From Rhodanobacter sp. Soil772 (lineage in GTDB: Bacteria; Pseudomonadota; Gammaproteobacteria; Xanthomonadales; Rhodanobacteraceae), in assembly GCF_001428385.1 (NCBI RefSeq), contig NZ_LMSK01000004.1:62001-126000 (forward strand): 64,000 nucleotides of DNA. The letters run 5' to 3'. Of the stretch, positions 1 to 13,089 are shown in pieces. Under the pieces are notes generated by a model, which was not told where the DNA came from, did no database searches, and was given only the letters and a program-made list of their open reading frames with translations. Position 1 is the first letter of the stretch. Each line of letters begins with the position of its first letter. The position numbers and the translations under genes are program-made.

Positions 1-3000
1 ATCCATTTCTGAGCTGCCTGCGCGGCAGCGAACTCAGCCTGCAAGGTGCGATCGCGGTGCGACCATTTCTGAGCTGCCTGCGCGGCAGCGAACTCGTGGT
101 CGAACCACTTCGCCTGCCGAAACTCTTTCTGAGCTGCCTGCGCGGCAGCGAACTGTGCCCACGGCGACGGCCGAGGGCGTCAGCATTTCTGAGCTGCCTG
201 CGCGGCAGCGAACGTGATCCGGCGTGCGGTGCGGTAATAGTCGAATTTCTGAGCTGCCTGCGCGGCAGCGAACGACCCCTGGGATCCGCAGCAAGCCGCG
301 CTGGCTTTCTGAGCTGCCTGCGCGGCAGCGAACGGCGCGGCCGTAAGGCTTCCAGGCGTGCGACTTTTCTGAGCTGCCTGCGCGGCAGCGAACGCGACCA
401 GCTTCAGTGCTGCATTGTTGATGTCTTTCTGAGCTGCCTGCGCGGCAGCGAACTCGCGCAACACCTCGCCGGTGACCTGCATGCCTTTCTGAGCTGCCTG
501 CGCGGCAGCGAACTATGCGTCCCATCCTTCGGCGCCGTCTCGATATTTCTGAGCTGCCTGCGCGGCAGCGAACGGGTTTGCGCTTTCCGCACCACTGGCA
601 TTGCCTTTCTGAGCTGCCTGCGCGGCAGCGAACCCGGCCGGGTGGGTGATCTGGCGTTGGTTCATTTTCTGAGCTGCCTGCGCGGCAGCGAACTTGTACG
701 ACGGCACCGGCATGGCCAGCGGCGTTTTCTGAGCTGCCTGCGCGGCAGCGAACCGCACGTCTTGCTGGTAGCTCGCCTCGGGGTTTTTCTGAGCTGCCTG
801 CGCGGCAGCGAACGACTTCAAGGCCACGTTCAAGCGCATCGACAATTTCTGAGCTGCCTGCGCGGCAGCGAACGCGCGCCGGGACTCGCACGGACTTTCT
901 CCATATTTCTGAGCTGCCTGCGCGGCAGCGAACTCGCCGGCGGCGACAGGTGCGATGAACAACATTTTCTGAGCTGCCTGCGCGGCAGCGAACATGGAGA
1001 AATCGTCTGGTGCCATGGCCATGCTTTTCTGAGCTGCCTGCGCGGCAGCGAACGCGGCGAGGTCGACCATTCGGCTGATCTTGGTTTTCTGAGCTGCCTG
1101 CGCGGCAGCGAACGCCGATGTAGGTTTGCCGCAGCGCGCTGGTCATTTCTGAGCTGCCTGCGCGGCAGCGAACGGCGAGCAGGTCAGCGTGTGGAACCAG
1201 GCGCTTTTCTGAGCTGCCTGCGCGGCAGCGAACCTGCCCGGCGCCGCTGCTGCCGTGGCTGGCGTTTTCTGAGCTGCCTGCGCGGCAGCGAACATCGGTT
1301 GTCCACCCGGCCGCATTCCTCGGTCTTTCTGAGCTGCCTGCGCGGCAGCGAACTTCATGCCGCGGTAGCCGTCGATGGTCTCGTCTTTCTGAGCTGCCTG
1401 CGCGGCAGCGAACTCGGCGGCGGCCAGGCGAGCGGCATCCTGCTCTTTCTGAGCTGCCTGCGCGGCAGCGAACTGTAAGGGCAGGCGCAGGCGCCGGGAT
1501 GGCTGTTTCTGAGCTGCCTGCGCGGCAGCGAACAGTTGGTCAATGGCCGATGACCTCACCGCGCTTTTCTGAGCTGCCTGCGCGGCAGCGAACGCCAGCA
1601 GCGCGGCGGCTACGTCGGCGGTGCCTTTCTGAGCTGCCTGCGCGGCAGCGAACCCGCACTTGACCACCCACGGGTGCTCGGCGTTTTTCTGAGCTGCCTG
1701 CGCGGCAGCGAACGTGGCGTGGCCGGAAGCATCGACGCCGACGTTTTTCTGAGCTGCCTGCGCGGCAGCGAACGCCAGGCTGGCGGTGCCGCCGGCGGGC
1801 AGCGATTTCTGAGCTGCCTGCGCGGCAGCGAACACGTCGCGGCTGATGCCGGTGACGCCGTTGATTTTCTGAGCTGCCTGCGCGGCAGCGAACCTTGCCT
1901 CCACCGGAGTTGGCCTGGACCAGTATTTCTGAGCTGCCTGCGCGGCAGCGAACGAGTTGCCGCTCGATGCGCAGGGCAATGTTCCTTTTCTGAGCTGCCT
2001 GCGCGGCAGCGAACATGCGGGCGGCAACGAGATCGGCACGACGTTATTTCTGAGCTGCCTGCGCGGCAGCGAACTGAGCCACAGTTCAAAAGTGCCGGGC
2101 ACGCCGTTTCTGAGCTGCCTGCGCGGCAGCGAACATGCCCTTCGGGGTGGCCGGCGCTTCGGCGCTTTTCTGAGCTGCCTGCGCGGCAGCGAACTCCCCA
2201 CCAGCGGCACGGGCGGCGGTGGTGGTTTTCTGAGCTGCCTGCGCGGCAGCGAACGTGTCTCCGGTGATCGCTATGGCTGGCCCCTTTTTCTGAGCTGCCT
2301 GCGCGGCAGCGAACGATGCTTGGCGTGCTTACCGTCGTCATCGTTCTTTCTGAGCTGCCTGCGCGGCAGCGAACGGTGTGGATCCAGCCGTAAGGCGCTT
2401 CGAGCTTTTCTGAGCTGCCTGCGCGGCAGCGAACAGGGCGGCGCCGGCGTCGTCGCTGAGCCAGGCTTTCTGAGCTGCCTGCGCGGCAGCGAACGCCATC
2501 GGCGACAACAGCCCGCTCAACGAAAATTTCTGAGCTGCCTGCGCGGCAGCGAACGTTACATCGGCCGCACCGATGACTTGCCCGCCTTTCTGAGCTGCCT
2601 GCGCGGCAGCGAACGATCGCGGGCTCAAGACGCACATGAGCAACGCTTTCTGAGCTGCCTGCGCGGCAGCGAACTTGCACCATTCGCAGGTGATGCGTGG
2701 CGCGTACTTTCTGAGCTGCCTGCGCGGCAGCGAACGCGCCGATCCCGGCACTGTTCGGCCGTAACAATTTCTGAGCTGCCTGCGCGGCAGCGAACGATGA
2801 TGTACGCGCGCTTCTGCGCTTCCGTCATTTCTGAGCTGCCTGCGCGGCAGCGAACGATCTGCATGCGCAGCGCCTGCTTCGCATCCGTTTCTGAGCTGCC
2901 TGCGCGGCAGCGAACTCAGCGACGTGCTGATTCTTCTTCGCCTTCTCTTTCTGAGCTGCCTGCGCGGCAGCGAACCTCGTCCATCGCCTTCGAGACGGCA

Positions 3001-3635
3001 GGCATCATTTCTGAGCTGCCTGCGCGGCAGCGAACCATCGCCGCGCAAGGCACCTGCACGATGTCAATTTCTGAGCTGCCTGCGCGGCAGCGAACTGCAG
3101 CCAGCCGGCGCGAACGGCTACCTCGGTTTTCTGAGCTGCCTGCGCGGCAGCGAACAAGGCGATGAACCCGGCGCACATCGTCTATGATTTCTGAGCTGCC
3201 TGCGCGGCAGCGAACTTGCTGCGGTATGTGCACCTGTTACGCGAGCGTTTCTGAGCTGCCTGCGCGGCAGCGAACAATGTCGTCTCGAACGTGACGCAGT
3301 CCGTCAATTTCTGAGCTGCCTGCGCGGCAGCGAACGTGATGGCCTCGATTTCTTCAGGGTCGATCATTTTCTGAGCTGCCTGCGCGGCAGCGAACGTGAA
3401 GCGGATGCTGGACGGCCGCGTGCACATTTTCTGAGCTGCCTGCGCGGCAGCGAACTTCTTTATCGCCTGCAACTGGGCGTAGCGCCCTTTCTGAGCTGCC
3501 TGCGCGGCAGCGAACGAGGCGTCGACCGAATACCTCGCCAACTCGCATTTCTGAGCTGCCTGCGCGGCAGCGAACACGAAGGTGACCATCGAGGCGCCCA
3601 ACATTCATTTCTGAGCTGCCTGCGCGGCAGCGAAC
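1..3635 (-). CRISPR. Type I-F CRISPR array, at least 61 repeats (left end cut by window)
   Basis: Sixty-one copies of one 28-nt repeat, with no variant seen, begin at 6 and recur every 60 nt. On the minus strand each repeat starts GTTCGCTGCC and ends GCAGCTCAGAAA, with a central Cas6f hairpin of stem CTGCC/GGCAG and loop GCGCA, as in type I-F (Csy) systems. Spacers are 32 nt, except two of 33 nt at 1954-1986 and 2675-2707 that shift the register by one. The last complete repeat, 3608-3635, is leader-proximal because the cas genes and the AT-rich leader lie on that side. Positions 1-5 are the end of another spacer, so the array continues past the window and its total length is unknown. Transcription should run on the minus strand, from about 3647 towards 1. 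Perfect repeat identity over 3.6 kb suggests an active or recently expanded array. Confidence 0.99.
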
Positions 3636-3766: not shown

Positions 3767-4333
3767 TTAGAACCAGGGGATTGTCGTGGTTCCACCCAGG
3801 CCATAGCTGTTGAAGCTGCCGGGTGTCGCGTCGACAGCGAGCGGGCCGAGCGTGATGAACAGGCAGAACGGCTGTCCGGTGCTGTGGCTGCGCAGGTATA
3901 CGTAGGGAAGATTGGGGCGATGCTCCATGCTGGATGGAATGGCCTTGGCTGCTTGTTCCTCCGTTTCTCCCTTGCGGCGCATGCGTCGCCTGCGCAAACG
4001 CTCGGCGCTGGTCTTGAATTGCTTGCGTTGAACGGTGCGGTGCGATGCACCTGCCGGTACACCGGCAATCTCGGTCATGCGGACGTGATCGCGTACGCCT
4101 TTGAGCCAGTCTGCTTGCGTCAGTTGCTGCAGTGCGTGGTCGCTTCCGTGCAGACGCAACGTGGTACCCAAAGTACGTGGATTCATGGTGTAGCCCGGGA
4201 AACTGATCCCGATGTTGTCCAGTCGATGTTGCACCAGGGTGAGGTGCAACCTGTTGTACAGCGCACCGAGCAACTGCGGTGCGCTGGATTCTGGATCGGG
4301 TCTGACGCTGATGTCGATGTAGTGCGTAGTCAT
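3767..4333 (-). CDS. cas6f: Type I-F CRISPR endoribonuclease Cas6f (Csy4)
   Basis: This 188-aa protein matches the usual length of Csy4. It cuts pre-crRNA at the 3' base of the repeat hairpin and stays bound to the crRNA 3' stem-loop in the Csy complex. Visible features are His30 in YNRLH, which lines up with the catalytic His29 of the Pseudomonas aeruginosa enzyme, and Ser149 in LRSHSTGQ, which lines up with Ser148. An arginine-rich helix (about 108-121, ERLRRRRMRRK) inserts into the RNA stem major groove in the family. The C-terminal end IPWF is also family-like. It lies 5 nt after csy3, is the last gene of the csy1-2-3-4 operon and is followed by a terminator. The same enzyme should process both the main array and the mini-CRISPR at 7880-7960. 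Confidence 0.97.
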   Translation of the reverse strand: MTTHYIDISVRPDPESSAPQLLGALYNRLHLTLVQHRLDNIGISFPGYTMNPRTLGTTLRLHGSDHALQQLTQADWLKGVRDHVRMTEIAGVPAGASHRTVQRKQFKTSAERLRRRRMRRKGETEEQAAKAIPSSMEHRPNLPYVYLRSHSTGQPFCLFITLGPLAVDATPGSFNSYGLGGTTTIPWF

Positions 4334-4338
4334 GGCGG

Positions 4339-5364
4339 TCAGCCTGCTTCGCCGAACACACCGCCGCGAATGAGTGTGGCGATGACGTAATGCTGCTGTT
4401 CCGCTTCCGGTGCCTTGTCCTTGATGATCCAGTTATCGAGGAGGTTGTAGAAGTCGGCCTTTTCCCTAGGCTGACGGTACGCCTTACCCTGGGTGGTGAC
4501 CGAACCGTAGGGCTCGACGGCGATGGGGCCGTTCGCAGCCGCTTCGGGATACCAGGTGTCGATGGTGCGCAGGGCATTGCCGACCTTTTGCGAGTGGATG
4601 GCGGCCACGCCGTCGACGTCGTACAGCGTCTTGCTCTTCTTGCTGGAGCCCTTGTCGAGGATCAGCTCCTGCGAGGGGAACACTTCCTGTCCGGCGCCGA
4701 TGCGTACGAAGGCGGTGACTTGCAGCAGCACGCGAGCCTTGTCGGCAAGGCCGTCGGCGATCAGCGAGGCCAACTCGGACAGTGGCTGGGCTTCGGCGGA
4801 AGGCACTGTGAGATCGAGCAGCGAATGGGTCAGCGCATCAAAGGTCCAACTGGTCTTTGATTGGCCGTTTTCGATGTGGGCCACGGTCACTTCCACCTGC
4901 TCGGCACCGATGCGGTTGCGCCACAGGAAGCGGCCGTTGGCGAGGTTGACAGCGTAGCGGCGGGCCAGCTCAGCAAAGCCGTGCTGCTGCACGTAACCGC
5001 CCACTGTGGCCAGCAGTTTCTGCCGGTAGGCGGCATCGTTGCAGGCGGAGGGTTGGCCGGTACCGGCCAGCACGCGCAGGGTGAACTGCACCTTCAGCGT
5101 GTCGGCATTGGCGGGCAGGGTGGCCACGTCCACGGTTTGCAGGTTGGGATTCTGGATGGCGGCATCCAGTTTGGCTGGGTCCTGCGCACCGCCCTTCAGG
5201 CGGTTGGAGATGGTGCCGCGTACGGATTTTTCGCGCAGCGTGATCGGTGCCCAGTTCTGCGACTCGCTGCGCGCGGCCCAGTTGCCGCCAGACAGCAGGG
5301 CATCGGAAGGATCGAGCTTGCGCTCGAAAGCGAGGACGGAAGCGGTCTTGAGTTCGTTGGCCAT
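4339..5364 (-). CDS. csy3: Type I-F backbone protein Csy3 (Cas7f)
   Basis: This 341-aa protein forms the helical backbone of the Csy surveillance complex (normally six copies) along the crRNA spacer. The start at [19 protein letters not shown] was chosen because it is the conserved Csy3 N-terminus and is preceded by AAGGAA 8 nt upstream. An in-frame ATG 25 codons earlier (5439) overlaps csy2 and encodes a non-family extension. The length is nearly the same as the 342 aa of the P. aeruginosa protein. The gene lies 19 nt downstream of csy2 and 5 nt upstream of cas6f. Each Cas7f subunit covers 6 nt of guide and flips out every sixth base, which matters for the mismatch pattern of the mini-CRISPR guide. 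Confidence 0.96.
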
Positions 5365-5383
5365 GATGGAATTCCTTGTCGTG

Positions 5384-6358
5384 TCAGAGAGTGGTGTCGA
5401 CGAAGCGATAGTCGTTGCGGCAGCGGTACAGCCCCTCATCGGGACGGCTGTCTGCGTACCAGAGCAGGTCTTGCGGTGCGTGCAGGCGGTGCGGGCCTAT
5501 CCATTCGCCCATCGAATACAGGCTTTCGACGAAGCGGAAGGGCGTGGTGGCGTCGCGCGCATTGGCCACGCTGCCGGCGTCGTGCAGTTCGCCCAGTGCG
5601 CCGTAGCCGACCGGGATGGGCACCACCCAGCCCGAGCCTTTCTTGCGGTCGCTTTGCCAGCCATCGTTGCCGGCGTTGGCCTTGGTGTCGTAATGCCAGT
5701 TGATGCGCGAAAGCGAAAGCCACGCATCGAGACGAGAGGCTTGCGGCGACTGCTTGCGCAAGTCCTTCAGGCGCGCATCGGTCAAGTCATCGCGGGCCAC
5801 CAATGCCGAGCCTGGCAGCAGGCGGGCACGAAGCTTGCGGAACTCCCTGGCCTGGTCGTCGCTGTCGCCAGTGAAGTTGGCCAGCCACGGGCGATGGCGC
5901 GAGGTTGGCGCTTGGGTGGCTGGCAACAGCGTGCCGCCGGCAATGCGCATGCCCTGCAGCAGGTCGAGGATGGTTTTCAGGTCACGTTGCTGCGCGTCCT
6001 GATCCCACGGCCCGGCATTCACCGCCAGCACCAGGCTGAGGTCGAGGTGGATGCGGCCTTCCTCGACGATGGCGGTGGTACTGCCGTCCTTGCCCACCGG
6101 GTTGCGGGTGAGACGGAAGCTTTTGACGAAGCCGCCCTCGGAGGTTTGCTCTTGGCGGTCGTGGCAGACCACGCCCACGGCGCCGAACTCCAGATCCAGC
6201 CCGGCCGCGCGGGTCTTGCGTTCCAGCGCCCATATCAGGCCCAGAAAGGCGGTGATGGACGGGAAGCCGTGGGTCAACGGGCTGGAGACGGCGTTGGCGT
6301 TGTGCACCTTGAGGTGCGGCAACACCAGCAGGTGGGTGAAGTGCGGAAGCGAGCTCAT
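5384..6358 (-). CDS. csy2: Type I-F protein Csy2 (Cas5f)
   Basis: This 324-aa protein has the family N-terminus ([29 protein letters not shown], about residues 7-35). In the Csy complex, Csy2 pairs with Csy1 at the 5' handle of the crRNA and helps form the PAM-sensing end. The start codon overlaps the csy1 stop as ATGA (4-nt overlap), which indicates translational coupling and fixes the start. Length is close to the usual 320-330 aa. No sign of truncation or frameshift was seen. Confidence 0.95.
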
Positions 6359-7728
6359 GCGGCACCTGCCTTGGCACGGCGTTGCCGGGGGATGGGCCAG
6401 GCAACGTCGAGGATGGCGTTACTGGCAAAGTGGCGCATCTCCGCTTCGCCCAGCATGGCCAGCTTGTCGCTGCGCTTGCGCAACTGGCCGTTGAGCCAGA
6501 GGCCGAAGCGGGTGGCTACTTCATCGGCCCAGTCGCCGCGTGCATAGGCATCGTTGAAGGCGAGGTCGGCTTCGCGCCAATCCGGGTGCTCGGGGTCGTC
6601 GCGTTCCGGCAATTCAGTACGCTCCGGATCGAGCCAGAGTTGTTCGCACAGAAGCAGATGGCAGTCGGCGTTCCGGGTCCAACCGGCGCCGCCACGCCCG
6701 CGCACGTCCGCGCCGAACAGGGACAGCGCTTCGGTAATGTCTTGCAAGAAAGCCATTACCCGGTCGCGGGTTTCCTTGTTTTGATCCGGGTCAGCCTTGA
6801 GGAAGTCCGCAAGCCCGCGAACGAGTTGGCGAACCTCATCGAAAACGAGGAACGTGCCGCGCTTTTCGTCGAATACCGATTCGAGTTTGAGCAGATTCAC
6901 GCCGTCGCGCGGTTTCCACGCTGGTGGCGGCAGCGAGGCCAGCAGGTAGTTCATGCCGCCACGTTCGCTGTTCAGTTGCGAGATGTTCTGCGGCTTGGTA
7001 CCGCCCAGCTTGCGGGCGACGAGGTCGCGGTAGTCGTGATAGGTGGCATCAGCCGGCTTGTTGTCGCGCTTGGCTTGTCGCGCTTCCTTGTTGGCTTCGC
7101 CAAAGCGCGCATTTTGAATGTCGGCGTGTACGGCGTGGGCTAGCGAGCTGGAAAACATCGGCTGCAGCAGGTGGTAGTGGGCATCATCCTGCGGGTCTTC
7201 ACCGGTGAGCCAGTAGAGCTGCTTGGCCATGGGGTGACTGGACGGCTGTGGTTCCTCGCGCACCAGCGAGGCGAAGGCTTTCATCCAGGCTTCGGCCTGT
7301 TCGGCGTCGTCGGAGAGCGCCTCCTGCAGGTCGGCATCACCAGCTTGCATCCAGTCGAGCAGACGCTTGCCTTCGACGTCGAGCTTGAGCAGCTTGAACA
7401 CATCCAGCGCGGCGGCGTTGCCCACCACATCCTCGGCGTAGTCCATGCCCAGGATGTGGCTGCCGATCTCCGTGTGTTGCGGCAGATGGGATGGAACGAT
7501 ATGCAGGCTGCTGCCGCGCGCGTCCGGGTGGGTGGCCTTGAGCACGTGGGTCACGGCTTGGATCTGGCCCACCCGTCGCGCCGCATCGGCTAACCAGGTG
7601 GCGTAGTCGTACTTCGATGCCGTGTCGGCATCGTCGTCCTTGCCTTTCAGCTTGGCCGAACGCCTGACCTCGATAAAGCCGGTGATAGCCGACTGGAACA
7701 GCAATTTTCGATCCGTAGAAGTGTGCAT
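6355..7728 (-). CDS. csy1: Type I-F large subunit Csy1 (Cas8f)
   Basis: This 457-aa protein is of usual length for Csy1. Cas8f recognises the 5'-CC PAM, binds the crRNA 5' handle with Csy2, and recruits Cas2/3 once the R-loop is complete. The family block PQNISQLNSERGG is present near the middle (about residue 250), the region that contacts the PAM in known structures. The ATG has the ribosome-binding site GAGGGG 5 nt upstream. It is the first gene of the csy operon. Its promoter is predicted at 7842-7870, giving a leader of about 107 nt, and that promoter carries a match to the guide of the adjacent mini-CRISPR. Autoregulation by the Csy complex is therefore likely. Confidence 0.95.
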   Translation of the reverse strand: MHTSTDRKLLFQSAITGFIEVRRSAKLKGKDDDADTASKYDYATWLADAARRVGQIQAVTHVLKATHPDARGSSLHIVPSHLPQHTEIGSHILGMDYAEDVVGNAAALDVFKLLKLDVEGKRLLDWMQAGDADLQEALSDDAEQAEAWMKAFASLVREEPQPSSHPMAKQLYWLTGEDPQDDAHYHLLQPMFSSSLAHAVHADIQNARFGEANKEARQAKRDNKPADATYHDYRDLVARKLGGTKPQNISQLNSERGGMNYLLASLPPPAWKPRDGVNLLKLESVFDEKRGTFLVFDEVRQLVRGLADFLKADPDQNKETRDRVMAFLQDITEALSLFGADVRGRGGAGWTRNADCHLLLCEQLWLDPERTELPERDDPEHPDWREADLAFNDAYARGDWADEVATRFGLWLNGQLRKRSDKLAMLGEAEMRHFASNAILDVAWPIPRQRRAKAGAA

Positions 7729-7841
7729 CCCATCCCCTCATTTTCCACTTGAGCACTAAGAGGTACTGAACTTCAGTCTCATGGCGCGCGACGCGAGCCA
7801 TCGGTTGACACCGAGAGGCATCGATCTCATCCTATAAGTGG

Positions 7842-7870
7842 CTTATAACCGTGATGCTGATTAATGTAAA
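7842..7870 (-). promoter_or_regulatory. Sigma-70 promoter of the csy operon
   Basis: On the minus strand TTTACA (7870-7865) and TATAAG (7847-7842) are separated by exactly 17 nt, each a 5/6 match to consensus. The start of transcription should be near 7835. The -10 lies in the inverted repeat TATAAG-TGG-CTTATA (7833-7847), so a mirror-image TATAAG also faces the plus strand. This is the best promoter in the intergenic region and it is covered by the predicted Csy target site. Confidence 0.75.
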
Positions 7871-7875
7871 ACTCT
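7849..7875 (+). promoter_or_regulatory. Predicted Csy-complex binding site (PAM CC plus protospacer) over the csy promoter
   Basis: CC at 7849-7850 is the type I-F PAM. The following bases GTGATGCTGATTAATGT (7851-7867) match the mini-CRISPR guide GTGACTCTGATGAATGT (7908-7924) at 14 of 17 positions. The mismatches are at guide positions 5, 6 and 12. Positions 6 and 12 are bases that are flipped out of the duplex in Cascade-type complexes and do not contribute to pairing. From position 18 on there is little match (two of eight). The site spans the -10/-35 spacer and the -35 of the csy promoter. Partial pairing of this kind is expected to allow binding without a full R-loop, hence repression without Cas3 cleavage. 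Confidence 0.8.
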
Positions 7876-7879
7876 CTAT

Positions 7880-7960
7880 GGCAACTACCGAGCAGGTAGC
7901 TCAGAAAGTGACTCTGATGAATGTTCGTCTGCGTCTGCTGCCGTATAGGCAGCCCGTGTC
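7880..7960 (+). CRISPR. Degenerate two-repeat mini-CRISPR (CreR-like locus)
   Basis: Two diverged copies of the array repeat lie on the plus strand. Pseudo-repeat 1 (7880-7907) matches 21/28 bases: the last eight, CTCAGAAA (the crRNA 5' handle), are perfect, while the first 20 match at only 13. Its hairpin CTACC-GAGCA-GGTAG keeps pairing through a compensated G-C to A-T change. Pseudo-repeat 2 (7933-7960) matches 17/28. It keeps the hairpin CTGCC-GTATA-GGCAG intact, but only two of the last eight bases match. So just the parts that end up in one mature crRNA are preserved. The spacer (7908-7932) is 25 nt, not 32. Orientation is opposite to the main array and divergent from csy1. A plus-strand promoter is not clear: TTGACA (7805) has a poor 22-nt spacing to TATAAG (7833), and TGTAAA (7865) lacks a good -35. 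Confidence 0.85.
7900..7952 (+). ncRNA. Predicted 53-nt crRNA-like regulatory RNA (CreR-like)
   Basis: Cas6f cleavage at the 3' base of each pseudo-repeat stem would release an RNA of 8-nt handle (7900-7907), 25-nt guide (7908-7932) and 20-nt 3' hairpin section (7933-7952). Ordinary crRNA here would be 60 nt. The guide matches the csy promoter next to a CC PAM (see 7849-7875). The proposed role is to load the Csy complex when crRNA or Csy protein is in balance and to turn the csy operon down. CRISPR-resembling RNAs that repress cas promoters (CreR) or toxins (CreA) are established for some type I systems. The role here is inferred from sequence only. Confidence 0.75.
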
Positions 7961-7962
7961 CT

Positions 7963-8000
7963 CAGAAGTGATTACAATGCAATCGTTGCAATCACTTCTG
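7963..8000 (+). promoter_or_regulatory. Inverted repeat and likely autoregulated promoter of the toxin-antitoxin pair
   Basis: Perfect 11-nt arms CAGAAGTGATT (7963-7973) and AATCACTTCTG (7990-8000) flank an inner GCAA-TCG-TTGC. A -10-like TACAAT (7973-7978) lies inside the repeat; no convincing -35 is present (it would fall in the second pseudo-repeat). The right arm runs into the ribosome-binding site GGAGGG (8000-8005). FitA/VapB-type antitoxins bind such repeats to repress their own operon, so this is probably the operator. Confidence 0.55.
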
Positions 8001-8012
8001 GAGGGCTTGCCC

Positions 8013-8267
8013 ATGGCCACCATGACCATTCGAAATCTGGACGACGATCTGAAGGCGCGCCTGCGCCTGCGGGCGGCGCGACACGGGCAGTCGATGGAGG
8101 AGGAGGCGCGCAGCATTTTGCGGGCCGCCTTGGCGAACCGTGTCGAAGACGATTCGGGTGCGTCGCTGTATGCCGCCATCCGCGCCCACGTGGAACCTTT
8201 CGGGGGTGTCGACCTGGAATTGCCACCGCGTGAGCCCCAACGTGATCCGCCGGACTTCGGCGAGTGA
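8013..8267 (+). CDS. FitA/VapB-like ribbon-helix-helix antitoxin
   Basis: This 84-aa protein starts MATMTIRNLDDDLKARLRLR and continues into a helix with HGQSMEEEAR, typical of Arc/MetJ-type (ribbon-helix-helix) FitA antitoxins. These bind operator DNA and neutralise a PIN-domain toxin through the C-terminal tail (here acidic and proline-rich, ending PPDFGE). The start at 8013 was chosen for the ribosome-binding site GGAGGG 7 nt upstream. The frame is open back to 7851, but that part lies over the mini-CRISPR and does not look like protein. Its stop overlaps the toxin start by 4 nt (GTGA). It is on the opposite strand to every cas gene and lies between cas2-3 and csy1. Confidence 0.88.
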   Translation: MATMTIRNLDDDLKARLRLRAARHGQSMEEEARSILRAALANRVEDDSGASLYAAIRAHVEPFGGVDLELPPREPQRDPPDFGE

Positions 8268-8680
8268 TCGTGCTGGATACCAACGTGCTGTCGGAGTTCA
8301 TGCGCCCGCAGCCGGACGAGCGGGTAGTGGCATGGCTGAAGCAGCAGACACGCTCGAACCTGTTCACGACGGCCGTTACGCGCGGCGAGATGTTGTACGG
8401 GGTGCTGATCCTGCCCGAAGGTCGGCGCAAGACACGCATGCACCAGGAGGTCGAGGCGATCTTTGCCGTTGACATGGCGGGACGCGTGCTGCCTTACGAT
8501 GAGGCGGCTGCCGATGCGCATGCCGCCATCGCTGCGGCGCGGCGCGTTCAGGGGCGTCCGGTTGAGCAGTTCGATGCGATGATCGCGGGTATCGCGCGCT
8601 CGCACGGAGCCACACTGGCCACACGCAATGTGCGTGATTTCGAAGGTTGCGGCATCCCCTTGATCGATCCCTGGCATTGA
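8264..8680 (+). CDS. PIN-domain ribonuclease toxin, FitB/VapC-like
   Basis: This 138-aa protein opens MIVLDTNVLSEFMRP, the PIN-domain strand with the first catalytic Asp. It continues with the conserved Glu in TRGEMLYGV (about residue 42), an Asp in EQFDAMIAG (about 104) and Asp in TRNVRDFEGCGI (about 121-124), the usual metal-binding set. FitB/VapC toxins cleave RNA to halt growth. The start is GTG, overlapping the antitoxin stop, so the pair is translationally coupled. It ends 12 nt before the convergent cas2-3 stop with no visible terminator between them. The location inside the cas locus suggests a role in stabilising the locus, but an ordinary TA insertion is equally possible. Confidence 0.9.
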   Translation: MIVLDTNVLSEFMRPQPDERVVAWLKQQTRSNLFTTAVTRGEMLYGVLILPEGRRKTRMHQEVEAIFAVDMAGRVLPYDEAAADAHAAIAAARRVQGRPVEQFDAMIAGIARSHGATLATRNVRDFEGCGIPLIDPWH

Positions 8681-8692
8681 TCTGCCTCAGCG

Positions 8693-11600
8693 TCATTTGG
8701 TGAAACCCAACCACGGGTGCCAGCGCCAGCCTTGATGGTTCTCTTTGAGAGATGGCACTTCCACGGTGGTGAGCCGGCGGGCGGCGAGATCGAGCGACAG
8801 GTCTTGCGCTTCGGCCTGTTCACTCACCAGTGACGACAGGTCGAACTCGCCCCAGCAGCTGATACCGAGTGCAACATTCAACGTGATCTCGTGAAGCAGC
8901 TCTCTGGCGGGGACATAGAGTTTCTCGCCGCGCCTGCTGCCCGGCGCGTCTTCCACGCGGTGCGGAAGCAGATTGTCTTCGTCCTCATCGGGCAACCATG
9001 CCAGCGTGGTGCCAGGCTGCTCGTCGTGGCGAAACGGTTGCTGTTGCGGCAGCACGCCGATCAACGCGGCTTGCGGGTGTTGCCAGGCCGCGGGCGCGTA
9101 ATCGCGTTCCAGTCGTGGAGCTGGTGCGGCGCTACGGCGTGCCGAGCGGGTGGCGGGTGGCGGTGGTGCCGGCAGCATGGCGGCGCGGATGCGTGCCTGC
9201 TCCAGATCGACCCAGCGTTCGCGTGGCTGAAGTTCGGTGGCGCGCGGCAGAATGCGCGGCTGGGCGTCGAGGTGACGGTATTCATCCTCGGCCAGCAGCA
9301 TGCGCAAGCTGTGACTGGTCAGCAGGAAGCGGCCATGGTCGCGATCGGTCTCGAAGCCGGGGCGGGCGAATACCGGCTGGCGTGCATCACGCTGCTTGAT
9401 GCCTTTGAGGTTGGTATCGAACACCAGCACGTTGGGTGCCTGTGGTGGTTTGCGGCGGTGGCGCTGCACGCGGCCGGCAAGCTGGATCAGCGAGCGCATC
9501 GAAGAAGGTTCGGCCAACGCCCAGTCGGCATCCCAGTCGCGGCCGACTTCGCACACTGGCGAGGCCAGCACCACGAACAGGTGCTCTGGTTCGGGATGCG
9601 CATCGAGCGCGTGCCGAATTTGCGGCAGTTGCCACACCGCATCTTCGTTACGGCGATTGAACGTGGCATCAAGCATGGTCTCGATCGCCGAGCGCTGCGC
9701 CAGCGGAAAGCGGGCGTGGTACACGCACAGGTGGATGCGCGTGCCTTCCGGCGCGGCATGTGTATAAAGCGCGCTGGCCACGTCGAAGATCGGATCGATG
9801 TTGGCCATGCGCACAAGGCCGAAGCTGACGCGTTTGCCGGTGAGGGGATCGGCGTGGGCGTGATCGCGATGCAGGCGCAGGCAGGCGTCGCGCACCTGGC
9901 TGGCGAATTCGGCATGGATGCGCTCGGGCTGTTGGGCAGCGGTGTCGACCGGCAGCAGTTCCGCGAGGCGCAGGGGTTCGGCGGATTGCAGCTTGCGCAC
10001 GCGGCGCTCGACGAAGCATGCATGGGCGGCGGCGAAGCCCCCATCGTCGGCAAGGGTTTCGATCTGGGGCGAACCGAATTCATCCGTCCAAAGGCAGGGT
10101 ACTTCGACGGGCCGCTCGCTGCCGCCGCCATCGCGCCCGCGGTTGCGCTGGTAATGGCGACGGCCGGCGCGATACGCCATGAACATGCCTTCCACCAATG
10201 CCGGTGGCAGGGTCGCGGAGGACAGCACCACGCGGCTGCCGAGCATGCCGGCCCAGTGCATCAGGCGGGTCAGCGCGGGCAGGTCGTCGAGGTCGTAATC
10301 ATCCAGTTCGTCCAGCACCAGGTCGCTGCTCATCAGCCGCAGCATCGGTGCGATCTGGCGGCCGGCGCGCAGCGATTCGGTGGCCGGTGCAAGGTGATCG
10401 ACGGTGCACACCAGCATCGGCGCGGAAATCAGCTTGCGAATCTCGGGGTTGGCCAGTGCCCGCGAGAGCAGCGGGTGGTCAGCCACATTACCCTCGTAGA
10501 GCACGTGGCTGTCTTCCTCGATCAGCGCCTGCACGGACGCCGAGCCGCTGGCCTCGGCTTTCGCTTCGTAATGCTCGAACAGGGCACGGCTGGCCGAGCC
10601 GCCGACCAGCACAGCCAGCTCATCGTCGTTCAAATGCAGGTCGTGGCGATAGCTACGCCCGGTCTGCAGGGTGAGGGTGCGCAGGCCCAGCGCGTAACTC
10701 ACTCGCAGGCCCAACTGCGGGTCGGCCAGGGCGTAGAGGATGCGGGCGTTGGCCAGCGTCTTGCCACAGCCGGTGGAGGCCATGTTGACGACGAAGGCAC
10801 CGTGTTCGCGCGCGGCCTCGCGCAGGCTGGTGGCCGCATCGAAGGCCTTGTCCTGCCAGGCAAAGCGCGCATCGCTGCTGCGCTTGCGCAGGCCGCGATG
10901 GTTGGCCAGTCGAGGCAGGTGGCGTTCGAAATTGGGCAACGCGTGGGCGATCAGGCTGGCGGTATGACCTACGCCGAGGAGATGTTCCAGCAGCGACTGG
11001 TTCATCACGCCGGGGCGCAAAGTATTGGCAAACACGGTTTGATCGCGCTGCACGAAGCGTAGGCGCTCGGCCACCGGCTTGCCGTCCTTGTCTACACCGA
11101 GGCTGGAGTAGTGGTGGTCGGCCAGCATCAGGCACAGGCGCGAAAGGTGCATCACATAGGGATTGCCCAGCCAATCCGCGTCGTGGCGTGACTTGAGATC
11201 TAGCAATGCCTTGGCGACGCGGCGCGCCTGAGCTCGCCATTCGGGCGCAACCGCCGGTAGTTCTCCAGCCAGTTGCCAGTAGGGTTGGGTTTGCGCAGGC
11301 GTGGAGCGTTGGTCGATTTCGTTCCAGTCGTGGGCCACCCTTGCCAAGGGTGTCTCCAGCCAGGCTGGCTCGAAGCGTCCCGCACGTTTTCCCAGCCAGT
11401 CCTGGCCGCTGCCGTCTTTCCTGGCCTCGGGAATGACCGGCAGACGGTGATGGGTGACGATCAGCCAGCCAATCGCGGCGGCCAGCGGTGCATGTGCTGC
11501 GAGATTGCGAAATGGATGGCGCTCGATGTTCTCATCCAGGCCGTCGCGCAGATAACGCCCCGATGCGGTCCAATCTGCTTCGCTGCCTTCATCCGTGCTG

Positions 11601-12118
11601 GCCAGCCGTGCGAGCCAACTTCCGTCGTCGTCGCCACCTACGAAGGCCAGGAACAGGCGCAGCGAAACCCATTCGTGGCGATAACGGTTGCGCTCGTCGA
11701 GCCTGTCTTGCAGGCGTTGCTGGAAGGCCACGCTGGCCTTGCCGAGGTCGTGCAGCAGCGCGGCCAGCTGTGCCAGCAGGCGGATATCCTGTGCGCTGTG
11801 CCAGTCATTCTCATCGCCAGCACGTAACACGTTGCGCACGGTGGTATTGGTTGGCACGGCACCTTCGATATTGAAACGGCTGGCGTTGCCGACGATCCAC
11901 AGCAACTCACTATGATCACGGCCACGAATCCAGTGGCAGGCCACCGCCGTGTTCTTGCGCGCAGTCTTGCGCAGCAGCTTGTGCAAGGTGTCCAGGCCGG
12001 CTTCGGTGATCGGCGTTTGCCAGGTGCGATCGCCGCGACGTTCGGCAAACTGGTCGAGGATGCGGCGGGTTTCGGTCAGCGCGCGCTTGTCGCACTGGCT
12101 GATCAGCAGGATGTTCAT
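8693..12118 (-). CDS. cas3: Type I-F Cas2-Cas3 fusion nuclease-helicase
   Basis: The 1141-aa protein has an N-terminal Cas2-like domain (about 1-95, MNILLISQCDKRALTETRRIL), an HD nuclease domain (His123-Asp124 in LLHDLGKASVAF) and an SF2 helicase with Walker A ASTGCGKT (447-454), DELDD box and SSATLPP motif. The fusion is diagnostic of type I-F. It joins Cas1 for spacer acquisition and is recruited by target-bound Csy complex to degrade DNA. The start overlaps the cas1 stop as ATGA. No damage was seen. It is separated from the csy operon by the mini-CRISPR/TA island, so adaptation (cas1, cas2-3) and interference (csy) genes are in two transcription units. Confidence 0.97.
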   Translation of the reverse strand: MNILLISQCDKRALTETRRILDQFAERRGDRTWQTPITEAGLDTLHKLLRKTARKNTAVACHWIRGRDHSELLWIVGNASRFNIEGAVPTNTTVRNVLRAGDENDWHSAQDIRLLAQLAALLHDLGKASVAFQQRLQDRLDERNRYRHEWVSLRLFLAFVGGDDDGSWLARLASTDEGSEADWTASGRYLRDGLDENIERHPFRNLAAHAPLAAAIGWLIVTHHRLPVIPEARKDGSGQDWLGKRAGRFEPAWLETPLARVAHDWNEIDQRSTPAQTQPYWQLAGELPAVAPEWRAQARRVAKALLDLKSRHDADWLGNPYVMHLSRLCLMLADHHYSSLGVDKDGKPVAERLRFVQRDQTVFANTLRPGVMNQSLLEHLLGVGHTASLIAHALPNFERHLPRLANHRGLRKRSSDARFAWQDKAFDAATSLREAAREHGAFVVNMASTGCGKTLANARILYALADPQLGLRVSYALGLRTLTLQTGRSYRHDLHLNDDELAVLVGGSASRALFEHYEAKAEASGSASVQALIEEDSHVLYEGNVADHPLLSRALANPEIRKLISAPMLVCTVDHLAPATESLRAGRQIAPMLRLMSSDLVLDELDDYDLDDLPALTRLMHWAGMLGSRVVLSSATLPPALVEGMFMAYRAGRRHYQRNRGRDGGGSERPVEVPCLWTDEFGSPQIETLADDGGFAAAHACFVERRVRKLQSAEPLRLAELLPVDTAAQQPERIHAEFASQVRDACLRLHRDHAHADPLTGKRVSFGLVRMANIDPIFDVASALYTHAAPEGTRIHLCVYHARFPLAQRSAIETMLDATFNRRNEDAVWQLPQIRHALDAHPEPEHLFVVLASPVCEVGRDWDADWALAEPSSMRSLIQLAGRVQRHRRKPPQAPNVLVFDTNLKGIKQRDARQPVFARPGFETDRDHGRFLLTSHSLRMLLAEDEYRHLDAQPRILPRATELQPRERWVDLEQARIRAAMLPAPPPPATRSARRSAAPAPRLERDYAPAAWQHPQAALIGVLPQQQPFRHDEQPGTTLAWLPDEDEDNLLPHRVEDAPGSRRGEKLYVPARELLHEITLNVALGISCWGEFDLSSLVSEQAEAQDLSLDLAARRLTTVEVPSLKENHQGWRWHPWLGFTK

Positions 12119-13089
12119 GTGGCCAGCGCTGCCGTGTCGAGTGCCACGGTTTTCACCGTATCGATCATGAAATCCAGCGATTCGCTACGAGTCAGCGCTT
12201 CGATGCATCCCCGGCGGAATTCCTGTTCGTCGTCGCCGCGCATGGCCGAAATGAAGGCCTGCGGAAGGATGCTGGCGTCCTTGACCAGATCGGCGACATC
12301 GAACACCAGGCCGCCGCGACGGGTCTTGCCGTGCAGGATGGCCAGCCCGTGCGGCAGGCCGAGCACCCAAGTGGCGGTGGCACCGAGACCGTAGGCGAGG
12401 TAATTGCCATGATCAAGGAAGCGATTTGCGGGGTCGGTACCACTGCCGCGCTTGGCGCGGGTGAAATCGCCGTAAGCGACGGTGTCGACCGCGAGTTTGA
12501 ATAAGGCCTTGGTGAGGCGTGCTTCCTCGGTCAGTAGGCAGGTATTGTCCTGCGCGAGATCGATCTGACGTCGGGTGCGTTCCAGTAGTCCGTCCAGACG
12601 ACCAGCGTCAACGGAAAAGCCGGCATCCCGTAACGCGCGCTGCTGCCACTGTTCACGGATTCGCGCGGCGCGGGCGTGCTGGAAAGCTTTGGCCGCAGCG
12701 AGACGTAAGTCGTCGTTGAACCAGAACCGTACCCAAGCCTGTAGGTATTCGGTAGGCCGGTATTCGCTCTGCGGCGAGAACCAGGCGACTTCGATATCGA
12801 TCTCATTCGCGCTGAACAAGGGTGTTCCGCCGCCGCCACAAAATCCGACCAATACGCCGGCTCTGGCCAGTTCACGCATCGCCGCTTGGGTCACCGAAGT
12901 CCCGGTGCCTAGTAACACAGTCGTGGTATTGGCGATCGGGATATTCCAGTACAGCGACTGTTTCCCCTGATCGGTTACATACTCGACCCGGCCACCGTTT
13001 ACCAATATGCGGCAGTGCTGCAGGTAGTAAATGTTGGCGCGCTTTGAATGCAGTATCGACTTGAGATCGGTAGGTCCGAACTCGTCCAT
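12115..13089 (-). CDS. cas1: Type I-F CRISPR integrase Cas1
   Basis: This 324-aa Cas1f inserts new spacers into the array with Cas2-3. The C-terminal block GLPHGLAILHGKTRRGGLVFDVADLVKDA holds the conserved His and Asp metal ligands, and the conserved Glu is in LLTEEARLTKALFKLA upstream. The N-terminus MDEFGPTDLKSILHSKRANIYYL is family-like. ATG is preceded by GGGGGA 7 nt upstream. It is the first gene of the cas1-cas2-3 operon. The upstream region holds a strong hairpin (13109-13144) and an AT-rich stretch (13165-13185) that may include the promoter. Confidence 0.97.
   Translation of the reverse strand: MDEFGPTDLKSILHSKRANIYYLQHCRILVNGGRVEYVTDQGKQSLYWNIPIANTTTVLLGTGTSVTQAAMRELARAGVLVGFCGGGGTPLFSANEIDIEVAWFSPQSEYRPTEYLQAWVRFWFNDDLRLAAAKAFQHARAARIREQWQQRALRDAGFSVDAGRLDGLLERTRRQIDLAQDNTCLLTEEARLTKALFKLAVDTVAYGDFTRAKRGSGTDPANRFLDHGNYLAYGLGATATWVLGLPHGLAILHGKTRRGGLVFDVADLVKDASILPQAFISAMRGDDEQEFRRGCIEALTRSESLDFMIDTVKTVALDTAALAT

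What the first reader, a model, noticed from the sequence alone, without database searches (positions are those of the whole stretch)
7849..7932. The mini-CRISPR guide matches its own csy promoter next to a perfect CC PAM
Guide bases 1-17 (7908-7924) and the promoter segment 7851-7867 share 14 of 17 bases: GTGACTCTGATGAATGT against GTGATGCTGATTAATGT. The two bases before the site are CC, the type I-F PAM. Two of the three mismatches fall at positions 6 and 12, which are flipped out in Cascade-type complexes. Pairing stops at about position 18, as expected if binding without Cas2-3 cleavage is selected. The site covers the 17-bp spacer and the -35 of the csy1 promoter. The simplest reading is negative feedback: spare Csy complex loaded with this RNA shuts off csy1-csy4. 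When crRNAs or an anti-CRISPR occupy or block Csy proteins, the operon would be released.
Basis: partly seen in the sequence, partly recalled or inferred. Interest (0 to 1): 0.97.

Follow-up and report, generated by a model that had tools for sequence, protein, structure and literature searches.

The report
Self-targeting CRISPR guide repressing csy operon
A bacterium's CRISPR immune system carries a tiny separate guide RNA gene whose guide matches the switch (promoter) of the system's own csy genes, so the immune complex most likely turns its own production down; this kind of RNA-guided self-control is already known in other CRISPR types, and here it is seen in type I-F.

Summary
In detail: CC 7849-7850, target 7851-7867, guide 7908-7932; 14 of 17 bases match, mismatches 5, 6, 12. 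Relatives make it far more than chance. Of 105 distinct csy1-upstream gaps of type I-F loci, 41 carry such a mini-CRISPR divergent from csy1, and 40 of these 41 guides have a significant CC-flanked partner site nearby; controls gave none. Pairing runs 5+1+5+1+5 bases with 6 and 12 free, fading after 17. Most relatives have a long leader after the site, 24 of them one structured RNA, often with a toxin-like mini-ORF (CreTA type). The window lacks this; its site overlaps the only good csy1 promoter. Best reading: a type I-F CreR, an RNA-guided autorepressor of csy1-csy4. The principle is known (CreR in I-B, I-E, V-A; CreTA in I-F); my searches listed no I-F CreR, but the original CreR paper could not be read. 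Short-leader forms lie scattered among CreTA forms on the Csy1 tree, suggesting repeated switching. There are no expression data; the position-5 mismatch is the main weakness.

The parts
7851..7867 (+). target of the mini-CRISPR guide (non-target-strand sequence)
   Evidence: 14 of 17 match; only such CC site in the window, and the only zero-mismatch pattern match in the genome
7849..7850 (+). CC PAM (type I-F)
   Evidence: family-wide the two bases before the best site are CC in 40 of 41 with no PAM required
7842..7847 (-). -10 TATAAG of the predicted csy1 promoter
   Evidence: best sigma-70-like pair on the csy strand, 17-bp spacing, score 7.2, next best 3.5 (hexamer weights recalled); the built-in scan, which demands T at the last place, reports no promoter
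7865..7870 (-). -35 TTTACA of the predicted csy1 promoter
7880..7907 (+). mini-CRISPR repeat 1 (degenerate; hairpin stem changed on both sides, 5' handle CTCAGAAA kept)
7908..7932 (+). guide (spacer), 25 nt
7933..7960 (+). mini-CRISPR repeat 2 (hairpin kept, handle lost)
7805..7833 (+). possible promoter of the mini-CRISPR (TTGACA-17-CATCCT)
   Evidence: best pair on the + strand, score 6.2; weak, unproven
7729..7836 (-). csy1 leader: no structured creT RNA, no Shine-Dalgarno mini-ORF with paired rare codons
6355..7728 (-). csy1 (cas8f)
   Evidence: PF09611
5384..6358 (-). csy2 (cas5f)
   Evidence: PF09614
4339..5439 (-). csy3 (cas7f)
   Evidence: PF09615
3767..4333 (-). csy4 (cas6f)
   Evidence: PF09618
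6..3635 (-). main CRISPR array, 61 repeats in the window, 158 exact repeats in the genome stretch read
8693..12118 (-). cas2-3
   Evidence: PF21384 and others
12115..13089 (-). cas1
   Evidence: PF01867
8013..8267 (+). FitA/VapB-like antitoxin (bystander, separates cas2-3 from csy1)
   Evidence: PF22513
8264..8680 (+). PIN-domain VapC/FitB-like toxin (bystander)
   Evidence: PF01850

Best explanation
A type I-F CreR-like module. A two-repeat mini-CRISPR divergent from csy1 gives a crRNA-like RNA (5' handle CTCAGAAA, 25-nt guide, 3' hairpin). Loaded in the Csy complex it forms a partial R-loop of about 17 bp at 7851-7867 beside a CC PAM, covering the csy1 promoter between its -35 and -10. Binding blocks RNA polymerase; pairing stops too early for Cas2-3 to cut. 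Csy1-Csy4 thus limit their own synthesis, and repression should lift when Csy proteins are taken up by array crRNAs or blocked by an inhibitor of DNA binding. Shown from sequence: the mini-CRISPR, the match, the PAM, the overlap with a predicted promoter, the recurrence in relatives, and the absence of the toxin leader. Inferred: transcription, processing, binding, repression, absence of cutting, release.
For: Match and uniqueness. Family recurrence: 40 of 41 mini-CRISPRs in 105 distinct gaps have a significant CC-flanked site; reverse-strand control 2 mini-CRISPRs and 0 targets, shuffled gaps 0. Guides score a median of 14 of 15 in their own gap and 8 in the other loci's gaps, among 36 strict cases (4 of the 1260 cross scores reach 13 or 14). 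Pairing profile over 40 pairs: positions 1-5 matched in 37-40, 7-11 in 35-38, 13-17 in 28-36, but 6 in 8, 12 in 5, 18 in 6 of 39. Two near relatives, L090 and L094, differ in guide position 3 (A or G) and their targets differ the same way. In 24 of 35 loci scanned (33 plus L048 and L072) the best promoter on the csy strand has its -35 starting 0-2 bases after the PAM, so the site is placed for promoter blocking; in the window and in L064 it lies inside the promoter. No creT leader in the window, no mini-ORF of that kind. vapBC lies antisense between cas2-3 and csy1, so csy1 should need its own promoter. csy1-4, cas2-3 and cas1 are open frames with Pfam matches.
Against: No RNA or expression data. 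The window's mismatch at position 5 is rare in the family (3 of 40: window, L121, L088), and in the Acinetobacter I-F CreA a change at position 5 abolished repression (PMC10097628, passages). The predicted -10 TATAAG lacks the usual final T, and the stricter scan found no promoter. The window's geometry (site inside the promoter) differs from the commonest one (site just upstream of -35). All five other same-genus genomes in which csy1 was found (L003, L004, L007, L009, L011) lack the mini-CRISPR, so it is dispensable. The short guide (25 nt) may load less well.
Confidence: 0.8

Rival explanations
1. CreTA: the guide is an antitoxin RNA that represses a small toxic RNA made from the region between the site and csy1, so that loss of the Csy complex poisons the cell.
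For: Same slot, orientation and PAM as the I-F CreTA of Acinetobacter (PMC10097628). Of 32 long-leader relatives, 17 have a Shine-Dalgarno mini-ORF with adjacent rare codons, against a mean of 0.79 (maximum 4) in shuffles and 0 in reverse complements. 24 loci match one structured leader RNA model, 17 of them its training set.
Against: The window's site is 122 nt from csy1 instead of 196-289 (544 in L020). Its leader does not match the leader model: the best unfiltered match is 4.8 bits at 7865-7955, outside the leader, against 27-156 bits in the 24 loci. It has no Shine-Dalgarno mini-ORF with paired rare codons and folds no better than shuffles (z -0.59).
Confidence: 0.08
2. A decayed relic: a former CreA or CreR whose pairing and promoter are no longer functional.
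For: Position-5 mismatch, short guide, no mini-CRISPR in the five same-genus genomes with csy1.
Against: The handle of repeat 1 is letter-identical to the array's; the hairpin stem of repeat 1 changed on both sides and still pairs; 14 of 15 scored positions pair; loss of the handle in repeat 2 is the rule (35 of 36 strict cases, all but L097).
Confidence: 0.08
3. The guide mainly controls the neighbouring vapBC (a CrePA-like protein-toxin module).
For: vapBC lies just downstream on the same strand; 7 of 12 gaps with the FitA-like antitoxin, the window included, also carry the mini-CRISPR.
Against: No other CC-flanked site for the guide in the window scores above 10 of 15; the site is 146 bp from the vapB start and beside the csy1 promoter; vapBC occurs without a detected mini-CRISPR in the other 5.
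Confidence: 0.02
4. An ordinary small CRISPR array with an anti-phage spacer that resembles the promoter by accident.
For: Two related viral contigs (L130, L131) hold a CC-flanked 16-of-17 match, better than the promoter over 1-17.
Against: Beyond 17 those contigs match only 1 of 8 bases, and the match lies inside a coding stretch shared by the two; they were selected for the first 17 bases from 2.9 million contigs. No viral contig matched the guide pattern run to base 19. Phage records gave best E 1 and plasmid records E 4. The family pattern excludes accident.
Confidence: 0.02

Closest known systems
CreR, cas-regulating RNAs of types I-B, I-E and V-A (Liu et al. 2023, Cell Host Microbe; paper not held; known here from passages of the reviews PMC13131331, PMC12737573, PMC12948488)
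   Same: mini-CRISPR; partial complementarity to the promoter of the cas operon; reported release by crRNAs and anti-CRISPRs
   Different: type I-F Csy complex; target inside the csy1 promoter next to CC; placed in the slot that holds CreTA in relatives; no experiment here. PMC12737573 calls CreR widespread in type I in general, so an I-F case may already have been predicted in the paper I could not read
CreTA of type I-F in Acinetobacter (PMC10097628; sections 6 and 15 and passages read)
   Same: cas3-csy1 gap, divergent two-repeat element, CC PAM, mismatch at position 6, partial pairing
   Different: there a toxic RNA gene lies downstream of the site; the window has none found; unpaired positions there are 6, 11, 18 of 20, here 5, 6, 12 of 17
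CreTA of haloarchaea (PMC8501985 abstract; PMC9458426 passages)
   Same: degenerate two-repeat guide, repeat 1 diverged more than repeat 2
   Different: the toxin is a tRNA-sequestering RNA; that these are type I-B is recalled
Cas9 autorepression by a natural guide (recalled; SpyCas9 autorepression is mentioned in PMC13131331)
   Same: a natural guide directs the effector to its own promoter
   Different: type II single protein and tracrRNA, unrelated parts

Membership tests
CreR (RNA-guided cas autorepressor) | two-repeat mini-CRISPR outside the array, next to cas genes | tested here: met
CreR (RNA-guided cas autorepressor) | guide partly complementary to the cas promoter, beside the right PAM | tested here: met
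   the promoter itself is a prediction
CreR (RNA-guided cas autorepressor) | no toxin gene between site and cas genes | tested here: met
   no leader RNA, no mini-ORF of the creT kind; an unrelated toxin RNA cannot be excluded
CreR (RNA-guided cas autorepressor) | RNA made, processed by Cas6 and loaded | not testable with these tools
   hairpins and handle present; no RNA data
CreR (RNA-guided cas autorepressor) | cas expression rises on loss of the guide, with excess crRNA or with an anti-CRISPR | not testable with these tools
   needs experiment
CreTA (type I-F) | mini-CRISPR in the cas3-csy1 gap with CC-flanked site | tested here: met
CreTA (type I-F) | creT: Shine-Dalgarno mini-ORF RNA downstream of the site | tested here: not met
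CrePA | protein toxin gene under the targeted promoter | tested here: not met
   the gene under the site is csy1; vapBC is on the other strand and has no site
ordinary CRISPR array | identical repeats, full-length spacers from foreign DNA | tested here: not met
   repeats degenerate, 25-nt spacer, no full-length foreign match found

The most novel reading that the evidence does not exclude
Type I-F systems carry one self-targeting guide slot between cas2-3 and csy1 that has switched repeatedly between two jobs: antitoxin of a toxic leader RNA (CreTA) and, after loss of that RNA, plain autorepressor of csy (CreR). The window is one such conversion, with the site now inside the csy1 promoter.
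Probability: 0.5. Interest if true: 0.75.

Novelty: new member of a known kind. Interest (0 to 1): 0.6.

Why it matters
It extends RNA-guided self-control of CRISPR to type I-F and gives 40 natural guide-target pairs that outline the pairing rule (5+1+5+1+5, fading after 17) for binding that is presumably meant not to cut. Because CreTA and short-leader forms are mixed on one Csy1 tree, it makes the question of how an addiction module turns into a regulator directly testable. The rule also helps to find such elements elsewhere.

Tried and rejected
Considered and rejected: chance match; creT toxin in the window; vapBC as the target; phage or plasmid origin of the guide. The built-in promoter scan found nothing, so a weight scan of my own with hexamer frequencies recalled from general knowledge was used. 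A strict mini-CRISPR search found 36 of 105 gaps, a relaxed one 41. Even the relaxed one missed L099, where I see a mini-CRISPR and a site by eye; L105 has the leader but no clear repeat 1. L097 looks like a small regular array and has no target. My first target search left out sites overlapping repeat 1 and gave 28 of 36; later ones include them and gave 33 (another threshold) and 35. Sites were ranked on positions other than 6 and 12 (also 18 and 24), so the counts at 6 and 12 are free of that choice, while the high counts at the other positions are partly selected for. The mini-ORF search preferred ORFs with paired rare codons; shuffles and reverse complements treated the same way are the control. 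The 105 gaps were made distinct by 200 bases of sequence; near-empty gaps (L029, L041) fell together, and related species are not independent. Two class genomes with a csy1 match (G331, G468) gave no locus and were not examined. The leader model's covariation term is small (-0.24 of -10.1 kcal/mol), and E-values from it are rough.

Full report
What is there. The window comes from a 3.57-Mb genome in the same genus group as Rhodanobacter sp. 67-28: locus L004 of a same-genus genome has the same gap as named locus L113. Genes on the minus strand are cas1 12115-13089, cas2-3 8693-12118, csy1 6355-7728, csy2 5384-6358, csy3 4339-5439 and csy4 3767-4333, all open frames with Pfam matches. The main array follows, with 61 repeats in the window and 158 exact repeats when the stretch to the left is added. 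Between cas2-3 and csy1, on the plus strand, lie a FitA/VapB-like antitoxin (8013-8267) and a PIN toxin (8264-8680). In front of them is the mini-CRISPR: repeat 1 7880-7907, guide 7908-7932, repeat 2 7933-7960.

The match. CC 7849-7850, then GTGATGCTGATTAATGT against guide GTGACTCTGATGAATGT: 14 of 17, mismatches 5, 6, 12; pairing ends at 17. Guide shuffles: 0 of 2000 as good. In the window no other CC site scores above 10 of 15; this one has 14. In the genome the pattern (positions 5, 6, 12 free, up to 2 mismatches) finds only this site, with 0 mismatches, and the guide itself, with 2; the backwards control pattern found 1 match.

Promoter. On the csy strand the best sigma-70-like pair is TTTACA (7870-7865), 17 bp, TATAAG (7847-7842), score 7.2 against 3.5 for the next (weights recalled). 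The stricter built-in scan reports none. The site covers 14 of the 17 spacer bases and half of the -35; one base parts the PAM from the -10. vapBC lies antisense between cas2-3 and csy1, so csy1 should need its own promoter (inference).

Family. I searched 149 relatives, 369 class and 398 order genomes (15, 32 and 22 with a csy1 match, the sets overlap) and one named collection (64 loci). This gave 122 csy1 entries, three of them the window's own and others shared by two collections; two class genomes with a match gave no locus. The stretches upstream of csy1 form 105 distinct gaps; 8 of them lack a cas2-3 hit and were read for up to 1500 bases. A strict search found mini-CRISPRs in 36, all divergent from csy1. 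A relaxed search found 41, with 40 CC-flanked targets at p<0.01. Controls: reverse strand 2 found and no target; shuffled gaps none. The one without a target, L097, looks like a small regular array. With no PAM required, the best site on either strand is plus-strand and CC-flanked in 40 of 41. Guides score a median of 14 of 15 in their own gap and 8 in others' gaps (36 strict cases; 4 of 1260 cross scores reach 13 or 14). The handle of repeat 1 equals that of the locus's own array in 10 of 16 loci where both could be read, the window among them.

Pairing rule. Over 40 pairs: positions 1-5 matched in 40, 39, 40, 40, 37; 6 in 8; 7-11 in 38, 36, 37, 35, 38; 12 in 5; 13-17 in 36, 33, 34, 32, 28; 18 in 6 of 39; then 19-47% of the pairs long enough at each position. 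Position 6 is as random; 12 is a little below 25% (P 0.30 and 0.04). That bases at every sixth position are flipped out in Cascade is recalled knowledge. L090 and L094 are near relatives whose guides differ only at position 3 (A or G) within 1-17, and the targets differ likewise; target changes at 6 and 17 are not matched. This is direct covariation, though a single case. The window's mismatch at 5 is shared only by L121 and L088.

Two classes. In 32 gaps the leader is long: in 30 of the 40 the site lies 196-289 nt from csy1 (544 in L020), and L099 and L105 were added after the leader model found them, with leader ends set by hand. A covariance model built from 17 of these leaders (14 of its 19 pairs show a change on both sides in at least one sequence) hits 24 of 104 sources at E of 1.4e-4 or better: the 17 training loci and 7 others, L005, L020, L021, L047, L099, L103, L105. 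Rfam reported only CRISPR repeats in 7 loci searched, 4 of which hold the leader. Seventeen of the 32 leaders have a Shine-Dalgarno mini-ORF with adjacent rare codons (AGA AGA, TTA TTA, TCA TCA, AGG AGA and others); shuffles give a mean of 0.79 and a maximum of 4, reverse complements 0. This resembles CreT toxins: two consecutive rare codons in a haloarchaeal CreT (PMC8501985 abstract) and a Shine-Dalgarno mini-ORF in this same gap in Acinetobacter (PMC10097628). By eye, many also have a start codon that could pair with codon 5, as in the Acinetobacter CreT hairpin; I did not test this. The other class, ten loci including the window, has the site 38-158 nt from csy1. None of the ten has such a mini-ORF with a Shine-Dalgarno; without that demand L118 shows one, starting inside its promoter. 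The window gives no model hit in the leader (best unfiltered match 4.8 bits, 7865-7955, E 0.033 for 501 bases, over the mini-CRISPR). In L090, L094 and L118 the site abuts TTGACA or TTGACT and csy1 starts 69-78 nt on, which leaves little room for anything but csy regulation.

Evolution. On a quick maximum-likelihood tree of 70 Csy1 proteins (at least 46% identical to the window's), the six short-leader rows need 4 changes, and starred branches force 4. The window sits in a starred group of 13 with 7 CreTA-like, 5 without a guide and itself; L090 and L094 sit with CreTA-like L115. Stars of a quick tree are less reliable, and the direction of change is not shown by these counts. All five other same-genus genomes with csy1 (L003, L004, L007, L009, L011) lack the mini-CRISPR; the first four have vapBC.

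Foreign targets. A guide pattern to base 19 has no hit in viral contigs. The 17-base pattern with CC and free positions 5, 6 and 12 has 3. Two related ones (L130, L131) match 16 of 17, more than the promoter, but then 1 of 8, inside a shared coding stretch. I take them as chance in a very large collection. Phage records: 9 matches, best E 1; plasmid records: 1 match, E 4.

What is known. CreR autorepression is reported for I-B, I-E and V-A (PMC13131331 passage; PMC12737573 and PMC12948488 passages; the original paper is not held). Type I-F CreTA is known from Acinetobacter (PMC10097628). Searches listed no paper on a type I-F CreR; but PMC12737573 calls CreR widespread in type I, and the original paper and most subscription papers could not be read, so this is not proof of absence. 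I therefore call it a new member of a known kind, with interest above routine for the I-F class, the large set of pairs and the CreTA-CreR mixture.

Noticed in passing
L006:2898-3083, L010:2877-3063, L063:4744-4923, L102:4732-4934 and 20 other loci: A structured leader RNA between promoter and csy1 (24 loci). Of 32 long leaders, 17 have a Shine-Dalgarno mini-ORF with adjacent rare codons; probably creT toxins of type I-F. Rfam reported only CRISPR repeats in the 4 leader loci searched.
   Followed up: partly
window 8013-8680: FitA/VapC-like toxin-antitoxin pair antisense in the cas2-3/csy1 gap; the antitoxin is found in 12 of 105 gaps, 7 with and 5 without a detected mini-CRISPR. A palindrome at about 7965-7998 looks like its operator (by eye).
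   Followed up: partly
window 6-3635 and L128: Very long CRISPR array: 158 exact repeats, so CreR RNA would have to compete with many crRNAs.
   Followed up: no
L013 and L061: Two tandem CC-flanked sites for one guide upstream of csy1, as if for stronger repression.
   Followed up: no
L090 and L094: Natural covariation of guide and target at position 3 in two near relatives.
   Followed up: yes
L048 (gap positions 166-188): The target overlaps repeat 1 of the mini-CRISPR itself.
   Followed up: no
window 7805-7833 (+): Possible promoter of the mini-CRISPR lies just upstream of the site, so the bound complex could also block its own guide gene.
   Followed up: no
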